A stretch of DNA of 64,000 nucleotides from the NCBI GenBank assembly GCA_000317655.1, contig CP003940.1, forward strand, positions 1,993,547 to 2,057,546, in the 5' to 3' direction. This DNA comes from Cyanobacterium stanieri PCC 7202 (lineage in GTDB: Bacteria; Cyanobacteriota; Cyanobacteriia; Cyanobacteriales; Cyanobacteriaceae). The position numbers were made by a program, and so were the translations under genes. Numbering within the stretch: the stretch's first letter is position 1; every line of letters starts with the position of its first letter. The notes under the pieces were generated by a model that had not been told where the DNA came from, ran no database searches, and saw only the letters and a list, made by a program, of their open reading frames with translations. Shown one piece after another: positions 36,771 through 43,289 of this stretch.

Positions 36771-37412
36771 ATGACAGCAGTTATAAGTAAACCCAGAGGA
36801 GAAAATATTGTTAGGTTAAACTCCGTTAGTTGGACGACTTTTAATCGCCTTCTCAATGAATTAGGCAATAAAAGAAATCAACGTTTAACTTACTATGATA
36901 ACGTTTTAGAGATTATGAGCCCTTTAGGTGTACATGAAAATAATAATCGTTTTATTGAAAGTTTAATTTTTGTAATAGCCGATGAATTAGGATTAAATTT
37001 GAAGAAGTTTGGCTCATTAACCCTTAAATCGAACCAATTTCAACAAGCGGTAGAGCCTGATTCTTGTTATTATTTACAGAATGAGCCTAAAGTTAGAAAT
37101 AAACAACAAATTGATCTGACAAACGATCCGCCTCCTGATTTAGTATTAGAAATAGATATAACTGGTGGTTCATTACATAAATTACCTATTTATGCTAACT
37201 TAGGTGTGCCAGAAATCTGGCGTTATGATGGAGAAAAATTAACCGTTTTTATTCTTAAAAAAGACATCAACAATTATCAGGAGGTAGATAAAAGTTTAGC
37301 GTTTCCATTTCTCAATTTAAGTGTAATTCCAGAGTTAATTGAACAAAGTTTAATTGATGGAGAAACTGCGGTTTTAAGAGGTTTTAGAAATTCTTTCAAA
37401 AATAGTCTGTAA
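36771..37412 (+). CDS. Uma2-family (DUF820) putative endonuclease
   Basis: The 213-residue Uma2 protein carries the nuclease-like core PPDLVLEIDIT (about residues 120-130) and LPIYANLGVPEIWRYDGEKL. The Asp of PPD and the Glu/Asp of LEID are in catalytic positions. The usual lysine of the S...K motif may be in SLHKLPIY. A CAGGAAAA ribosome-binding sequence precedes ATG 36771. The gene is bounded by 28-bp inverted repeats at 36601-36628 and 37514-37541. Function unknown; a nuclease role is inferred from the fold. Confidence 0.88.
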   Translation: MTAVISKPRGENIVRLNSVSWTTFNRLLNELGNKRNQRLTYYDNVLEIMSPLGVHENNNRFIESLIFVIADELGLNLKKFGSLTLKSNQFQQAVEPDSCYYLQNEPKVRNKQQIDLTNDPPPDLVLEIDITGGSLHKLPIYANLGVPEIWRYDGEKLTVFILKKDINNYQEVDKSLAFPFLNLSVIPELIEQSLIDGETAVLRGFRNSFKNSL

Positions 37413-37574: not shown

Positions 37575-39212
37575 ATGGATAATATACTATTAAATAGATA
37601 CGAAATAATTAAACATTTAGGCACAGGGGGATTTGGGGAAACCTATCTCGCCAAAGATTTACATAGCCCTACCCAAAAAAGAGTAGTTGTCAAATCCCTA
37701 AAACAAATCCATGACAAAACCCGCTCAGAATTTATTGAAAAACTATTTTTAAAAGAAGCCTCTACCCTCGAAGAATTAGGGGAAAATTGTAAACAAATTC
37801 CTACCCTCCATGCCTATTTTCATCATCAAGATAGATACTATTTAGTACAAGAATATATTGAAGGAAAAAGTCTTAATAAATTAGGTATTATTTCTGCTGA
37901 TAAATGTAAAGAAATTCTGCTTTCTTTTTTGGAAGTATTAAAATATATCCACAGTGAAAATATTATCCATCGAGATATAAAACCCGACAATATTATTATC
38001 AGGGAAAAAGACAATCTACCTGTCTTAATCGATTTTGGGGCAGTTAAAGAAAAAATGGGTAGCTTTACCACCGAAGACGGTTCAGTTTTAAGCTCTGTAA
38101 TCGTTGGTACAAGGGGTTTTATGGCACCTGAGCAAAGTATGGGGCGTACGGTTTTTAGCTCGGATTTATTTGCCCTTGGCTTGACGATGATTTATTGTTT
38201 AACGGGTAAATCACCCATGGAGTTTCCTTCAGATACCATGACGGGGGAATTGCAGTGGCAAGATTTTGTGCCAAATTTAGAGCCTCGATTTAAGGAAATT
38301 TTGGAGAAGGCTACTAAAATGGATATTCCTAGCCGATATAATAGTGCGGAGGAAATGTATCAGGATTTGTCGGCGATTATGGGGGGAATGTTAATGGTTT
38401 CTCCTCCCCTTGTGACTCCTGCCGTGGAAAATACTCGGTTATCTTCTCCTCAAAATACTGATTTAAAAACGGAAGTGATAACCCCTGTAGCTAGTTACGA
38501 GGAAGAATCTAATTCCTCTGCTTTTTTGATGGCAATTTTGGGGGCAGTAGTTATTTTTCTGGCTTTGGTGGCTGGTTTTTTTGTCGCCCAACCAAGACAA
38601 AATAATGAGGTAATTGTTAGGGAGACGGAGGAGGAAGTTGAGGAGGAAGAGACTGCATCTGTGGAAAGGGAGAATGGGGAAAATATAGACATCAATCCTG
38701 TGGAGGAAGAAACTACCCCCATAAATCCTAATCCTGTTACCCAAGAAATACCTGAAGAGAATAATATGGCGGAAGTAGAGTCTCCTCCTGATAATAATCT
38801 CCCCCCTGTGGAGGAAACTCCCCCTGTGGAAAATAATTCTAATCCTCCTGCACAGGAAAATTCACCTCCTGATAATACTCCTGTACTATCCACTGGACAA
38901 GCGGTTCAAACTGTACAATCATTATACTCCTATGTGTCATCAAGGCAGTTTGACAGTGCGATCGCCCTTTTTTCTCCATCTATGCAAAGTCAATTCAGTC
39001 GTAGCTTTTTTGAAAATTTTGATCGAGTAACGGTAGAAGAATTGACCGTGACATCTCAATCAGCGGAGTCAATTACCCTCGTGGGTTACAACACTTATTA
39101 TTATCCTGATGGTACAACCCAAAGGGAACAAAGAAACTTTACCGTAACGAATATTAATGGAGTACCGAAAATTAGTTCATCTCAATTTTTACGAGTGACT
39201 AAACCCCGTTAA
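37575..39212 (+). CDS. Membrane Ser/Thr protein kinase
   Basis: This 545-residue Hanks-type kinase has the glycine loop LGTGGFGETYLAKD (about 15-28), catalytic Lys40 (VVVKSLKQ), HRDIKPDN (about 132-139), DFG in DFGAVKE (about 153) and the APE equivalent FMAPEQSMGR. All active residues are present. A transmembrane helix (about 315-337, AFLMAILGAVVIFLALVAGFFV) is followed by an acidic and proline-rich linker (about 345-430, many VEETPP-like stretches) and a C-terminal domain of about 100 residues on the far side (VQTVQSLYSYVSSRQFDSAIALFS), NTF2-like in pattern. It probably senses an external or lumenal signal. It is followed by the repeat protein at 39390. Confidence 0.93.
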   Translation: MDNILLNRYEIIKHLGTGGFGETYLAKDLHSPTQKRVVVKSLKQIHDKTRSEFIEKLFLKEASTLEELGENCKQIPTLHAYFHHQDRYYLVQEYIEGKSLNKLGIISADKCKEILLSFLEVLKYIHSENIIHRDIKPDNIIIREKDNLPVLIDFGAVKEKMGSFTTEDGSVLSSVIVGTRGFMAPEQSMGRTVFSSDLFALGLTMIYCLTGKSPMEFPSDTMTGELQWQDFVPNLEPRFKEILEKATKMDIPSRYNSAEEMYQDLSAIMGGMLMVSPPLVTPAVENTRLSSPQNTDLKTEVITPVASYEEESNSSAFLMAILGAVVIFLALVAGFFVAQPRQNNEVIVRETEEEVEEEETASVERENGENIDINPVEEETTPINPNPVTQEIPEENNMAEVESPPDNNLPPVEETPPVENNSNPPAQENSPPDNTPVLSTGQAVQTVQSLYSYVSSRQFDSAIALFSPSMQSQFSRSFFENFDRVTVEELTVTSQSAESITLVGYNTYYYPDGTTQREQRNFTVTNINGVPKISSSQFLRVTKPR

Positions 39213-39389: not shown

Positions 39390-42300
39390 ATGGATATACT
39401 TTTCTCTTTTTCCTGTTGGAATCAAATAAATAAATTAAATTATCATGAAAGTAATAATCTCTTAAATATCATTAGAGAAACCATTACGGCAAATATTGAA
39501 CCACAAAAAATATCAGAATATCTGACCAATAATCAACCATTGATTATTAATCTTAGGATAGATGAAAATAATCATCTTATTGGTATTCTATTACCCCTGC
39601 CAAAAGTAATTAAATTGATCGGCTTTTCCTCGGAAACTGAACTTGATTTAGAAAGATATTCTTACCATAGTAAAACCATTGATATTGACCAAGATTTGAA
39701 TGATATTATTACTAAAATCCATGGAAATTTCCAACTTAGTAATCATGCAATATCTAGCATAACTATCGAGGAAAATGATTTTTATCTTCGTAACTTAACA
39801 CTGAATAACTTTAACAATAGTTCCATAATTTTATCCACTCAACAAAAAGAATTTTTAGACAAAAATAATACCCTCCCTATTCTTTTATCAGGTAATCAAG
39901 GAACAGGAAAAACTACTATTTCTCTATATCATGCCCTAAGCAAAATAGTTAAAAATCAAAATAATCCTGAATATAAAATTGTTTATCTCACCAGTACCCA
40001 AAGCGAACAAAAACAAGTTAAAAACATTGTCAAAACATTAAACAAAACTACCCCTAAAAATTTAGTAATCAAAGATTATCAATCATTCACGAAAAATTTT
40101 GCTACAGAAAATGAATTAAAAACTAAACATCAATTCTTTGCTCAAAGACAAATCACAGAATACAAATTTAAAGAACAGTTTTGTCAAGAAAATAATCTCT
40201 CTAATATTGACATCAATCTTCTTTGGCAGGAAATTAAACAATTAATAAAAGGTTCTCATAAATCTCTCAAAAATAGTCAAGGGCTAATTACTTTAAATGA
40301 CTATTTAGCATTCAAACATCAAAGTCTCTTTTCTCTTGACACTGATTTTAACCAAGTTTATGAAGTAGCCAGTCAGTATCAACAGTGGTTAGAAAATAAT
40401 AATTATTGGGATCAAATCGATTTAGTTCAGCATATTCTTAAAAAACTTCCTGACAACTATTCTGGCACTTACAATGCTATTTATATAGATGACATAGATA
40501 GATTAAGTGAAATTGAAATACAACTTATTTTTAAATTATTAAAAATAGAAAATAAGCAGGAATATATACCCCAATTATTTATCACAGGAGAAGATAATTC
40601 CCACTTAATTAGAGGACATTTCAACTGGGGAAGGGTGAAAAAAATTGCCCTAGAGGAATATTTAAAATCCCCTCAATGGATTAAAATCCGTCCTAGCCTA
40701 GAGCCTAAATATTTTAACTGTAGTTTTTCCACCACGGATAAAATCAACTATTTGCTTAATTGTATTGTTAACCTTGCACTTCGGGATGAAGCCAAAGAAG
40801 AAGTTGTTTTTCACAATCAGTTATCTTGGATTAAGTCTCATTATAAACCGTTAATTGTTTCTACTACAGAAACAGAAATTTTGAGCCAAGGAGATAGATT
40901 TAGTGGTAGTCATAGTATTATTGTTAAAACGGCACGGGAAAAGGAAAAACTTGCTAATGTATTTCCTAAAGATAGTGAAAGGATTTTGTTAGTTAATGAG
41001 ATTAACGATTTGCAGTTTGATCAGGTTTTAATTTGGAACTTTTTTGAGAACATAGAGGATATTTTTCAGCAAAATAGAGACTTTCAAAGAAATTTTTATC
41101 AAGATTTATTTGTAGCCATAAAAAGTGCTAAAAAAAGAATTTATTTCTATGATCAATTTAATAATAGTTTTTGGAATCAAGACGAAATTAGTAATTTAGT
41201 GGAGTTGGGTTATCCTACGGAATTAGGCGAATTTTTCTCTGGGGATAGGGAAGAAGATATTGATGTTGTCATTGATAATTATTTATATACAGGCTCTTAT
41301 AAAGCCTATAAAATCTGTAGTCAAATCTATTTTCAGGCCAATGATATTTTGGGGGCGGCTAGAATTGAGGCGTTATTAGAAGAGGTAAAAGGAAATTGGG
41401 GACAGGCAGGAGATATTTGGAATAAGTTACAAATTTTCGATGAGGCTATTCGTTGTTGGAATGAGGTAGATGGGAAGTTATGGGAGGCAAAATGGGCGAC
41501 GACGAAAAGAGAAAATTGGAGTCAAAGGGGATTATATTTTGAGCAAAAAAGGGATTTTGATCTAGCTAATTTTTGTTATGATAAAGCAAAAGATTTTGCT
41601 GGAAAATTACGCTGTTTAGAAGCTAACAATGATTGGGAAATAGCAGGGGATAAATGTCAAGAAAAAGAGCTATTATCTCAGGCACAAAAATATTATGAAT
41701 TAGCGGATAAATATTATCAATCAAAGGGTCAATTTCAGTCTGCAGTAAAAATGTGGACGAGGTTGGAAAGGTTAGATAAGGTTGCTTTAATTTGGGAAAA
41801 TTTGGAGCAGTGGGAGAAGGCTGGAAATTGTTGGCAAAAACAAGGAAACATTCAGAGGGCTGCGGATTGTTGGCAAAAGGCACAAAAATGGTCAGAGGCA
41901 CAAAAATGTTGGTTGGAGTTGGGTAAGTGGAATAATTTGGGTTTGTCCTATGAAAGTCAAGGGCAATGGGTATCTGCGGCACAAATATGGCAAAAAGAAG
42001 GTAATTTACAAAGGGCTGGTTTTTGTTATCAGAATGCCAATGAGTGGGCTTTGGCGGAGGATTTATGGCGAAAATTGGAGTATTGGGGCTATGTGGCGAT
42101 CGCACTTCAACAACAAAAAAAATGGCAAGAGGCGGCACAAATGTGGGAGAAAACAAGCCCCTATGAGTTACAAGCCCTGTGTTACGAAAGATTAGAAAAT
42201 TGGGAAAAAGCCAAAGAAGCATGGTTAAAAGCCAATAAATGGAGTCAGAGCATTATCTGTGCCGAAAAAGAAGAAAAATGGGAAGAAGCCGCCGAAAGTT

Positions 42301-43289
42301 GGGAAAATTTGGGAGAATGGCAATCCGCAGGTAAGGCATGGGAAAAGGCAGGAGAAATAGAAAAAGCTGCCCTTTGTTATGAGCAGGGAAATTTTTGGGG
42401 CGAAGCCGAAGAATGTTGGCGTCAATTAGAAGATGAAAGTGCGATCGCCATTACCCTAGAAAAACAAGAAAAATGGGCCTTGGCAGGGGAAATTTGGCAA
42501 GAATTAGGAGAATGGAAATCCGCAGGTAAAGCATGGGAAAAAGCAGGAGACATAGAAAAAGCCGCCCTCATCTACGAAACAGGCAACCACTGGCGTGAAG
42601 CCGAAGAATGTTGGCGCCTCCTAGGCAACGAAGCCAAAACCGAAGCTGCCGCCACCAAACAAGGTACATGGGTAGCCGCCGCCCACGACTGGTTAAAATC
42701 AAACCAAATTGAACAAGCCGCCCTCTGTTACGAAAAATGCCAAGACTGGGAAAGAGCAGAAAAATACTGGCAACAGGCCAAAAACTGGGAAAAACTAGCT
42801 CAAGTATCCGAACAACAAAACAAATGGCAACAAGCCGCCCAAGCCCATCTCAAGGACGATCACCCAGAAAAAGCAGCCCTCTGCTACGAAACACTCGAAG
42901 ATTGGCAAAAAGCCGAAGAATGTTGGCGAAAAGCGTGGAAATGGGAGCAATTAGCCCGAGTTTGCGAACAACAACAAAAATGGAAAGAGGCTGCCGACGC
43001 TTGGATGAAAGCCGACAACCTCGAAAAAGCAGTTAACTATTACGAAAAAATCCAAGACTGGGAAAGCGCCGAAGAATGTTGGCGCCAACTCTCCAACTGG
43101 GAAAGACTTGCCATTGTCTGTGAAAATCAAGCCAAATGGGAAGAAGCCGCCCAACTATGGACATTTTTAAATAATTGGCAAAAAGCCGCCCTCGCCTGTT
43201 TGGCAATGGATGATGTTGAAACCGCCATCAAATACTACGAAAAAGGCAATTACACCGAGGAAGCAGACAAACTGAGAAAAAATAATTAA
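39390..43289 (+). CDS. Degenerate UvrD-like helicase fused to tryptophan-rich helical repeats
   Basis: This 1299-residue protein has two halves. Residues about 140-600 show superfamily 1 helicase landmarks: ILSTQQKEFLD (Q-motif-like), Walker A SGNQGTGKTTIS (about 167-178), Walker B AIYIDDIDRLSE (about 362), a motif III-like LFITGEDNSHLIR, NEINDLQFDQVLIW (motif V) and DLFVAIKSAKKRIYF (motif VI), where the usual arginine is replaced by lysine. Residues about 630-1299 are some thirty alpha-helical units of about 20 residues with W-x2-A-x2-CW cores. The Walker A is intact, so NTP binding is likely, but unwinding is doubtful. I do not know the protein's function. The start codon follows the kinase by 177 bases. 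Confidence 0.8.
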   Translation: MDILFSFSCWNQINKLNYHESNNLLNIIRETITANIEPQKISEYLTNNQPLIINLRIDENNHLIGILLPLPKVIKLIGFSSETELDLERYSYHSKTIDIDQDLNDIITKIHGNFQLSNHAISSITIEENDFYLRNLTLNNFNNSSIILSTQQKEFLDKNNTLPILLSGNQGTGKTTISLYHALSKIVKNQNNPEYKIVYLTSTQSEQKQVKNIVKTLNKTTPKNLVIKDYQSFTKNFATENELKTKHQFFAQRQITEYKFKEQFCQENNLSNIDINLLWQEIKQLIKGSHKSLKNSQGLITLNDYLAFKHQSLFSLDTDFNQVYEVASQYQQWLENNNYWDQIDLVQHILKKLPDNYSGTYNAIYIDDIDRLSEIEIQLIFKLLKIENKQEYIPQLFITGEDNSHLIRGHFNWGRVKKIALEEYLKSPQWIKIRPSLEPKYFNCSFSTTDKINYLLNCIVNLALRDEAKEEVVFHNQLSWIKSHYKPLIVSTTETEILSQGDRFSGSHSIIVKTAREKEKLANVFPKDSERILLVNEINDLQFDQVLIWNFFENIEDIFQQNRDFQRNFYQDLFVAIKSAKKRIYFYDQFNNSFWNQDEISNLVELGYPTELGEFFSGDREEDIDVVIDNYLYTGSYKAYKICSQIYFQANDILGAARIEALLEEVKGNWGQAGDIWNKLQIFDEAIRCWNEVDGKLWEAKWATTKRENWSQRGLYFEQKRDFDLANFCYDKAKDFAGKLRCLEANNDWEIAGDKCQEKELLSQAQKYYELADKYYQSKGQFQSAVKMWTRLERLDKVALIWENLEQWEKAGNCWQKQGNIQRAADCWQKAQKWSEAQKCWLELGKWNNLGLSYESQGQWVSAAQIWQKEGNLQRAGFCYQNANEWALAEDLWRKLEYWGYVAIALQQQKKWQEAAQMWEKTSPYELQALCYERLENWEKAKEAWLKANKWSQSIICAEKEEKWEEAAESWENLGEWQSAGKAWEKAGEIEKAALCYEQGNFWGEAEECWRQLEDESAIAITLEKQEKWALAGEIWQELGEWKSAGKAWEKAGDIEKAALIYETGNHWREAEECWRLLGNEAKTEAAATKQGTWVAAAHDWLKSNQIEQAALCYEKCQDWERAEKYWQQAKNWEKLAQVSEQQNKWQQAAQAHLKDDHPEKAALCYETLEDWQKAEECWRKAWKWEQLARVCEQQQKWKEAADAWMKADNLEKAVNYYEKIQDWESAEECWRQLSNWERLAIVCENQAKWEEAAQLWTFLNNWQKAALACLAMDDVETAIKYYEKGNYTEEADKLRKNN
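42312..42620 (+). repeat. Near-identical 195-bp duplication within the repeat array
   Basis: DNA at 42312 onwards and 42507 onwards is nearly identical for about 110 bases (same words GGAGAATGG, ATCCGCAGGTAA and GCATGGGAAAA, and GAAGCCGAAGAATGTTGGCG later). The shift of 195 bases equals 65 residues, three repeat units. Recent copying within the gene is indicated. Confidence 0.7.

What the first reader, a model, noticed from the sequence alone, without database searches (positions are those of the whole stretch)
39390..43289. Helicase-like NTPase fused to a long tryptophan-rich helical repeat array
The combination of a UvrD-like core with intact Walker A but degenerate motif VI (IKSAKKR in place of TRA-type arginine) and about thirty 20-residue W-x2-A-x2-CW units is unusual. 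It resembles the logic of sensor NTPases with repeat arms. It lies after a transmembrane kinase and may be a signalling or defence component of undescribed type.
Basis: partly seen in the sequence, partly recalled or inferred. Interest (0 to 1): 0.65.

Follow-up and report, generated by a model that had tools for sequence, protein, structure and literature searches.

The report
Dead helicase with huge protein-binding arm
A cyanobacterial protein descended from a fused RNA-cutting-toxin-like domain and DNA/RNA motor appears to have lost both activities while keeping its ATP-binding pocket and its long, strongly conserved helical arm, so it probably works as an ATP-binding scaffold rather than a motor or a virus sensor.

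Summary
The ORF at 39390-43289 (+, 1299 aa) is real and conserved: a degenerate RelE/HigB-like head (about 1-100), a UvrD-like SF1 core (about 151-600) and a helical array (about 670-1288). The repeat unit is 13 residues, not 20: 41 scored units, at most 2 in shuffles, modelled as 10-11-residue helices with short turns.

Degeneracy goes beyond motif VI. In 13 orthologues and 10 copies of a longer paralogue, Walker A Lys and Walker B Asp are kept in 23 of 23; the catalytic Glu survives in 1, the motif IV and first motif VI arginines in 0. All three are intact in 12 of 12 active-type relatives. The head's Arg-Arg-His set is also lost. The array is best conserved and longer in degenerate copies: 22-32 units in near active-type relatives, 40-46 in orthologues, 70-87 in the paralogue.

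15 of 15 held genomes of the family carry the orthologue (two cut at contig ends, one with in-frame stops). No neighbour is generally conserved. Best reading: an ATP-binding pseudohelicase scaffold derived from a RelE-UvrD protein of ARMADA ArmD-like build. Partners unknown.

The parts
39390..43289 (+). the gene (P0001, 1299 aa plus stop)
   Evidence: orthologue in 15 of 15 held genomes of the family, two of them cut by contig ends (G292, G298) and one with in-frame stops (G299)
39390..39689 (+). degenerate RelE/HigB-like domain, residues about 1-100
   Evidence: orthologue profile matches the N-terminus of near active-type relatives, E 7.2e-13; the pooled profile of active-type relatives (10 sequences) matches cyanobacterial HigB, probability 72%, E 3.3e-5, but the orthologue profile does not match HigB directly, 0.33; of the Arg-Arg-His set P0001 keeps only the first Arg; 0 of 100 positions invariant in 12 orthologues
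39840..41189 (+). UvrD-like SF1 pseudohelicase core, residues about 151-600
   Evidence: relatives with PF00580 over cut-off, alignment, tree; 66 of 450 positions invariant in 12 orthologues
39891..39914 (+). Walker A (motif I) GNQGTGKT, kept
   Evidence: Lys 13 of 13 orthologues and 10 of 10 paralogues
40485..40508 (+). motif II IDDIDRLS in place of DExQD: first Asp kept, catalytic Glu lost
   Evidence: Asp 23 of 23, Glu 1 of 23, active-type 12 of 12 for both
40584..40610 (+). motif III, Gln lost
   Evidence: Gln 0 of 13 orthologues, 2 of 10 paralogues, 12 of 12 active-type
40716..40736 (+). motif IV, arginine lost
   Evidence: Arg 0 of 23 against 12 of 12
40998..41027 (+). motif V EINDLQFDQV in place of xxKGLEFDxV
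   Evidence: Lys-Gly of motif V absent in P0001 (N539, D540); Lys kept in 3 and Gly in 6 of 23, against 12 of 12 for each
41115..41153 (+). motif VI AIKSAKKRIYFYD in place of xxTRAR, first arginine lost
   Evidence: Arg1 0 of 23 against 12 of 12
41397..43253 (+). array of 13-residue helical units, residues 670-1288
   Evidence: 41 units by scan, autocorrelation, AlphaFold2 mean pLDDT 83 with mostly 10-11-residue helices and short turns, TPR_2 70 bits against a cut-off of 27

Best explanation
P0001 is an ATP-binding pseudohelicase scaffold. Shown by sequence: it descends from a UvrD-like SF1 protein with a helical-repeat tail and, probably, a RelE-like head; the residues that hold Mg-ATP in the first RecA fold (Q-motif Gln, Walker A Lys/Thr, Walker B Asp; roles from general knowledge of SF1 helicases) are kept; the residues for hydrolysis and for coupling it to movement on nucleic acid (motif II Glu, motif III Gln, arginines of motifs IV and VI, motif V) are gone; the conserved Arg-Arg-His set of the head is gone; the array is under the strongest purifying selection and is longer in the degenerate lineages than in the near active-type ones. 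Inferred: ATP is bound but hydrolysed slowly or not at all, and sets the shape of the core; the 600-residue solenoid is the working part and holds one or more partner proteins; the gene serves a constant cellular (housekeeping) task of assembly or sequestration, exapted from a defence-type ancestor. Partner and process are not identified.
For: Key-residue table: Walker A Lys and Walker B Asp 23 of 23; catalytic Glu 1 of 23 (G296); motif IV Arg and motif VI Arg1 0 of 23; active-type 12 of 12 for Glu, IV Arg and VI Arg1. No DE.QD and no KG[LM] string anywhere in the first 680 residues of any of the 23, so these motifs have not moved. A tree made without the motif columns puts orthologues (98/96) and paralogues (100/100) in one clade apart from the active-type rows (94/98, not starred). 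Identity of the 11 other full orthologues to P0001 is 0.51-0.86 in the array segments (701-1299) and 0.34-0.64 in the core; dN/dS over six pairs is 0.05-0.13 in the array and 0.08-0.21 in the core (my division of dN by dS; dS about 0.8-1.3 in five of the six pairs, so near saturation). Array units: 22-32 in 4 near active-type relatives, 40-46 in 12 orthologues, 70-87 in 9 full-length paralogues. Found in 15 of 15 held family genomes while the active-type copy is found in 3 of 15. Precedents: AddB/RecC helicase domains that lack most or all motifs and are used as recognition modules, with ATP binding at AddB affecting stability of the Chi complex (passages of PMC4824097); GajB, UvrD-like but without unwinding or DNA binding in its assays and built into a complex with GajA (abstract of PMC10681800); ArmD, where a Walker A change abolishes and a Walker B change only weakens defence (passages of PMC12458937).
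Against: No biochemistry. AlphaFold2 of the core failed (mean pLDDT 43 on 4 sequences), so the ATP pocket is inferred from sequence only. One orthologue (G296) keeps a Glu in motif II; Arg2 of motif VI is Arg in 4 of 23; 3 of 23 keep the motif V Lys and 6 of 23 its Gly; one paralogue (G292_B, cut by a contig end) has an ITRY string at residue 585. Half of the paralogues have Glu for the Q-motif Gln, as have 2 of 12 active-type rows. A pseudohelicase may still bind nucleic acid, as AddB and RecC do. The RelE link of the head rests on a pooled profile: the near active-type relatives alone match HigB only at probability 5%, E 0.0077, and the orthologues not at all. The family sample is 15 genomes, one of which (G299, a 67% complete MAG) has in-frame stops in the gene.
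Confidence: 0.55

Rival explanations
1. Only the solenoid matters: the RelE-like and helicase parts are relics that persist as a folded cap, ATP binding is incidental, and the protein is a plain TPR-type adaptor.
For: Array most conserved, head near-unconstrained (0 of 100 invariant); loss of the catalytic motifs.
Against: The core keeps 66 of 450 invariant positions and dN/dS 0.08-0.21; Walker A Lys and Walker B Asp are kept in 23 of 23 although nearly everything else catalytic is lost; the array was not found without the core in 148 genomes, apart from one contig-cut and one 101-aa fragment, at most 8 candidates scored per genome.
Confidence: 0.2
2. It is still an anti-phage sensor or effector: an ArmD/GajB-like component whose core senses nucleic acid or nucleotide and whose arm recruits an effector.
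For: Five of six relatives scanned match GajB models of PADLOC, three of them RTasHel as well (the longer paralogue matches none); RelE-like + UvrD is the ArmD build; one active-type relative lies on a plasmid next to a NERD+UvrD gene; degenerate UvrD-like GajB is a known defence part.
Against: Present in 15 of 15 held family genomes; no ARMADA or Gabija partner seen beside it: of ten neighbours scanned at E <= 1e-5 only RecQ (matches DpdF, PsyrT, BrxH and other helicase models; its RQC and HRDC domains mark it as RecQ) and an Uma2 gene match PADLOC models (ChpXY and CinA were not in that scan but were named by Pfam), and the kinase matches kinase models; no conserved neighbour; the Arg-Arg-His set of the head is lost.
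Confidence: 0.13
3. It is a regulatory partner of the active-type paralogue or of the longer paralogue (hetero-oligomer of dead and live subunits).
For: Three-copy sets in G109 and G293; orthologue and longer paralogue occur together in 10 of 15 genomes.
Against: Active-type copy not found in 12 of 15 genomes; longer paralogue not found in G295, G151, G297 and G299 and broken in G119, so neither looks required. Two of the 15 assemblies are incomplete (G292 63%, G299 67%).
Confidence: 0.07
4. It is still a working but odd motor in which other residues replace the lost ones.
For: Walker A and first Asp of Walker B kept; Lys or Arg at the second motif VI position in 18 of 23.
Against: Combined loss of motif II Glu, motif III Gln, motif IV Arg, motif V and motif VI Arg1, with unrelated replacements in different orthologues.
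Confidence: 0.05

Closest known systems
ARMADA type II ArmD (RelE-like + GajB-like UvrD)
   Same: N-terminal RelE-like domain followed by a UvrD-family core (passages of PMC12458937); 704-705-aa cyanobacterial relatives (L076, L051) have Walker A Lys and Walker B Asp at 273 and 457-458, near ArmD's 266 and 454. The ArmD sequence itself was not compared.
   Different: No ArmA-C seen beside P0001; motor residues and the head's Arg-Arg-His set lost; long solenoid added
Gabija GajB
   Same: UvrD-like core without working helicase parts, used inside a complex (abstract and one section)
   Different: No GajA among the scanned neighbours; P0001 matches no PADLOC model at E <= 1; no RelE-like part or solenoid in what I read of GajB
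AddB / RecC inactivated SF1 domains
   Same: Dead SF1 core kept as a recognition module; ATP binding still matters in AddB (passages)
   Different: No nuclease domain found by Pfam in P0001; solenoid instead; AddA/RecB partners elsewhere in the genome not searched
TPR-class solenoids (OGT, CTPR, IFT-A)
   Same: PF07719 at 70 bits; best VIA Z 15.2 to the O-GlcNAc transferase TPR domain; IFT-A and clathrin among Foldseek matches
   Different: 13-residue unit (26 per hairpin) instead of 34 per hairpin; 12% identity and rmsd 19 for the best VIA match, so a shared arrangement only
RelE/HigB toxins
   Same: Pooled profile of active-type N-termini resembles HigB
   Different: P0001 keeps one of the three Arg-Arg-His positions; orthologues do not match HigB directly; an antitoxin was not searched for

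Membership tests
SF1A UvrD-like helicase (active) | Walker A Lys and Walker B Asp | tested here: met
   K174, D367; 23 of 23
SF1A UvrD-like helicase (active) | catalytic Glu of motif II, Gln of motif III, Arg of motifs IV and VI | tested here: not met
   D368, S404, S447, S579 in P0001; none of the five string patterns tried occurs elsewhere in its first 680 residues
SF1A UvrD-like lineage (ancestry) | homology to proteins over the PF00580 cut-off | tested here: met
   L060 and L061 over cut-off and aligned with P0001 over the core; P0001 itself shows no UvrD hit at E <= 1
RelE/HigB superfamily | fold/profile similarity | tested here: inconclusive
   pooled active-type N-terminus to HigB probability 72%, E 3.3e-5; distant active-type subset alone 36%, 3.7e-4; near subset alone 5%, 0.0077; to YoeB 6%, 0.0063; yardstick HigB to YoeB 42%, 2.7e-4; off-target helicase slices 0.059 or worse; P0001 orthologues to HigB 0.18%, 0.33; no PDB profile hit below E 0.43
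RelE/HigB superfamily | conserved Arg, Arg, His of the active-type domain | tested here: not met
   all three in 7 of 7 active-type rows examined (of 12), full set in 0 of 23 degenerate copies; P0001 has the first Arg only. That these are catalytic is an inference.
TPR (Pfam TPR_2) | profile over curated cut-off | tested here: met
   70.1 bits against 27
TPR (Pfam TPR_2) | 34-residue repeat | tested here: not met
   period 13/26/52/65
ARMADA type II | strict four-gene order with YprA, BrxHII and PglX homologues | tested here: not met
   neighbours in the window are RecQ, Uma2, kinase, ChpXY, CinA and others; BrxH models hit only the RecQ gene
Gabija | GajA next to GajB | tested here: not met
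   no GajA match among ten neighbours scanned; the flanking kinase, ChpXY and CinA are named by Pfam
AddAB/RecBCD | inactivated SF1 domain with partner motor and nuclease | tested here: inconclusive
   inactivated domain yes; no nuclease domain found in P0001; partner elsewhere in the genome not searched
STAND sensor NTPases | STAND NTPase domain over cut-off | tested here: not met
   nSTAND3 16.6 bits against a cut-off of 27.2; SF1 ancestry instead

The most novel reading that the evidence does not exclude
A defence-type protein with an RNase-like head, a UvrD-like motor and a helical-repeat tail was domesticated in one cyanobacterial family. Head and motor both died, the ATP pocket was kept as a conformational switch, and the tail was extended up to two- to threefold into an ATP-gated hub that is now found in every held genome of the family, in two versions (40-46 and 70-87 units).
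Probability: 0.35. Interest if true: 0.7.

Novelty: new variant of a known kind. Interest (0 to 1): 0.5.

Why it matters
It offers a graded series (active-type relative, orthologue, longer paralogue, all three in G109 and G293) in which the helicase motifs are lost while the protein-binding arm is longer. That makes the question 'what is ATP binding for once a helicase no longer moves' directly testable. It also suggests that ArmD-like defence parts can become fixed cellular scaffolds. No paper on this protein or on this three-part build turned up in nine searches of the held open-licence library, of which I saw listings and abstracts and opened six papers.

Tried and rejected
20-residue repeat unit: rejected. 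Kinase operon: rejected as a general feature. The kinase is adjacent in G000, G056 and G294 only, 3 of 14 contexts; the 15th genome, G292, has too short a contig to tell. Motifs shifted in the alignment: rejected for DE.QD and KG[LM], absent from all 23. Loose patterns do occur in 9 of 23 (NYR, NFR or EFR, loose [DE]..Q, one ITRY); in P0001 none occurs. Motif VI outside the family: my first pattern missed it in 12 of 26 relatives; they carry SR in place of TR, so the arginine is there. Array as a free-standing scaffold elsewhere: not found. PDB profile search for the N-terminal domain: no meaningful hit. AlphaFold2 of residues 1-640: too poor to use, so no fold search was made with it. Viral contigs and phage records: no match (the queries were active-type relatives L060 and part of L061, not P0001). 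Plasmids: P0001 matched 4 records; three of them (Crinalium, Euhalothece, one Cetobacterium) were looked at and carry active-type or more distant UvrD proteins, the second Cetobacterium was not. The first hhalign run misread some toxin frames, so its toxin comparisons were discarded and repeated with 14 of 20 HigB and 16 of 20 YoeB loci; the others gave no usable reading under my length and stop filters. One search is used only for comparisons between N-termini of the family itself. Papers: PMC11980606, PMC5512222 and PMC2701414 were searched by word, passages only; PMC11980606 and PMC2701414 hold no occurrence of 'helicase' or 'UvrD'; PMC9539457 and PMC4504706 (pseudohelicases) were seen in the listing and start of abstract only. 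A likeness to the eukaryotic TRANK1 was a recalled idea; one paper search was made for it and no sequence comparison.

Rows dropped before counts: G298 (orthologue cut by contig end) and G299 (in-frame stops) from the motif table; G282_act and G292_B from the tree; G292_A from the conservation table; G292_A and G292_B, both cut by contig ends, from the quoted unit ranges; 5 of 12 active-type rows from the head-residue count.
Full report
Observation. The frame 39390-43289 (+) codes for 1299 aa. Pfam gives TPR_2 at 70 bits over its cut-off and only weak P-loop matches in the N-terminal half; no UvrD model appears for P0001 itself at E <= 1. PADLOC gives nothing and NCBIfam only sub-threshold matches. 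The array is periodic at 13 residues and multiples, far above shuffles. It can be laid without an indel from 808 to 1288 with the pattern W-x-x-A-A-x-C/A-W/Y-E-K-x-x-x. AlphaFold2 models it with mean pLDDT 83 (360 of 700 residues at 90 or more; pTM 0.39) as helices of mostly 10-11 residues with short turns. Fold comparison places it with TPR-class solenoids; with a helical repeat this shows the arrangement, not the function.

Relatives. In the window's genome there is one paralogue of 1722 aa, outside the window. In a sample of 292 genomes of the phylum 31 have a match to the N-terminal 613 residues at E <= 0.001. Of the family of the window 15 genomes are held, and 15 of 15 match an active-type query. 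The orthologue is in all 15: two are cut by contig ends (G292, G298; the latter identified by its 60% identity to P0001 570-1297) and one has in-frame stops (G299). The longer paralogue is in 10 and broken in G119. An active-type copy is in 3 (G119, G109, G293). Two of the 15 assemblies are incomplete (G292 63%, G299 67%).

Motor. On an alignment of 35 proteins key residues were counted. Orthologues and paralogues together (23): Walker A Lys 23, Walker B first Asp 23, catalytic Glu 1, motif III Gln 2, motif IV Arg 0, motif V Lys 3 and Gly 6, motif VI Arg1 0 and Arg2 4. Active-type (12): 12 each for Walker B Asp, Glu, III Gln, IV Arg, V Lys, V Gly and VI Arg1; 11 for Walker A Lys with one row cut; 8 for Arg2. 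No DE.QD or KG[LM] string occurs in the first 680 residues of any of the 23; looser patterns occur in 9 of 23, among them one ITRY in the contig-cut G292_B, and none in P0001. Of the 27 frames that matched outside the family, 26 carry canonical DE.QD, N[YF]R and KG strings; 14 carry a TR-type motif VI and the other 12 an SR-type one; the 27th is a 391-aa partial frame. So in this sample the erosion is confined to the window's family. A tree made without the motif columns (33 rows) gives orthologues 98/96, paralogues 100/100, and both together as one side of a branch at 94/98, which is not a starred support. One erosion event is therefore the simplest reading, not a proven one.

Head. Six N-termini of active-type relatives were scanned one by one: the best matches are YoeB 0.001 and HigB 0.0069 (two members each) and ParE_like 0.0057 (one member), the one shown in full being under cut-off. 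The pooled profile of ten active-type N-termini matches cyanobacterial HigB toxins at probability 72%, E 3.3e-5. The known pair HigB-YoeB gives 42%, 2.7e-4 in the same set-up, and helicase slices used as negative controls give 0.059 or worse. Against this, the near active-type relatives alone reach only 5%, 0.0077, YoeB is matched only at 6%, 0.0063, and the orthologues do not match HigB (0.33). The chain holds through intermediates: orthologues to near active-type E 7.2e-13, near to distant active-type 6.3e-6. An Arg, Arg, His set is conserved in 7 of 7 active-type rows examined and as a set in none of the 23 degenerate copies; P0001 itself keeps the first Arg, and the ten paralogues read Asn, Glu, Lys/Arg. 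A RelE-derived, inactive head is my inference at about three in four.

Selection. Among 12 full orthologues the array is the most conserved part (0.51-0.86 identity to P0001 for residues 701-1299), then the core (0.34-0.64), then the head (0.09-0.55). dN/dS over six pairs, from the dN and dS, is 0.05-0.13 in the array, 0.08-0.21 in the core and 0.10-0.74 in the head, with dS about 0.5-1.3 in five of the six pairs. The gene is not a decaying pseudogene, but the head is only weakly constrained.

Arm length. With a scan matrix built from P0001, 4 near active-type relatives score 22-32 units, 12 full orthologues 40-46 and 9 full paralogues 70-87; shuffles of P0001 reach 2. The matrix favours P0001-like units, so remote relatives (1-17 units) are undercounted. 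The order also follows protein length (1057-1221, 1299-1345 and 1660-2173 aa). Whether the arm grew or the active-type arm shrank is not settled by this.

Surroundings. Neighbours in the window are ordinary: RecQ, Uma2, a kinase, ChpXY, CinA, a Na/H exchanger and others. Of ten of them only RecQ and Uma2 match PADLOC models at E <= 1e-5, and the kinase matches kinase models. Across 14 contexts of orthologues no neighbour family is general (the widest is in 4); the kinase is adjacent in 3. Ten neighbours of active-type copies in four loci were scanned: most are ordinary genes; one on a plasmid is a NERD+UvrD gene, and a cyclic-nucleotide-binding channel gene beside the G119 copy matches TIR-effector models. 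Proteins with a UvrD-type core over cut-off and, by eye, a similar N-terminus also occur on plasmids of Paraclostridium (TPR over cut-off) and Cetobacterium (TPR under cut-off).

Mechanism. Kept ATP-holding residues with lost hydrolysis and coupling residues point to an ATP-bound, non-moving core; the conserved and longer arm points to protein binding. Precedents seen here: AddB and RecC (passages), GajB (abstract and one section), ArmD (passages). That P0001 binds ATP, that it binds a partner and that the task is housekeeping are inferences.

Novelty. Pseudohelicases, UvrD-like defence subunits and RelE-UvrD fusions are known kinds. The combination of a dead motor and a dead RelE-like head with a 40- to 87-unit solenoid, found throughout the held genomes of a cyanobacterial family, did not turn up in the searches made, which cover open-licence papers only.

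Noticed in passing
37575-39212 (+): Ser/Thr kinase with, by eye, a hydrophobic segment; its kinase domain matches PADLOC PD-T4-6 models strongly (best 1.3e-88). Adjacent to the pseudohelicase only in three close genomes.
   Followed up: partly
36771-37412 (+): Uma2-family gene, matches PADLOC PDC-S17 (3.2e-40) and is 99.5% identical in G294.
   Followed up: no
L122:3590-10111 (G293): Longest paralogue seen: 2173 aa with 87 scored units.
   Followed up: partly
G119:C1:1142550-1143461: Broken copy of the longer paralogue with in-frame stops, in a genome that keeps the orthologue and the active-type copy.
   Followed up: no
L010:7974-11900 (G299): Orthologue with three in-frame stops in a 67% complete MAG; real decay or sequence error not settled.
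   Followed up: no
L128:4878-8027; L129:4488-7349: Paraclostridium and Cetobacterium plasmid proteins with a UvrD-type core and, by eye, a RelE-like N-terminus, outside Cyanobacteria.
   Followed up: partly
41623-42222 (-): 199-aa open frame antisense to the array, with counterparts in some orthologues; most likely a by-product of the repeat's codon pattern.
   Followed up: no
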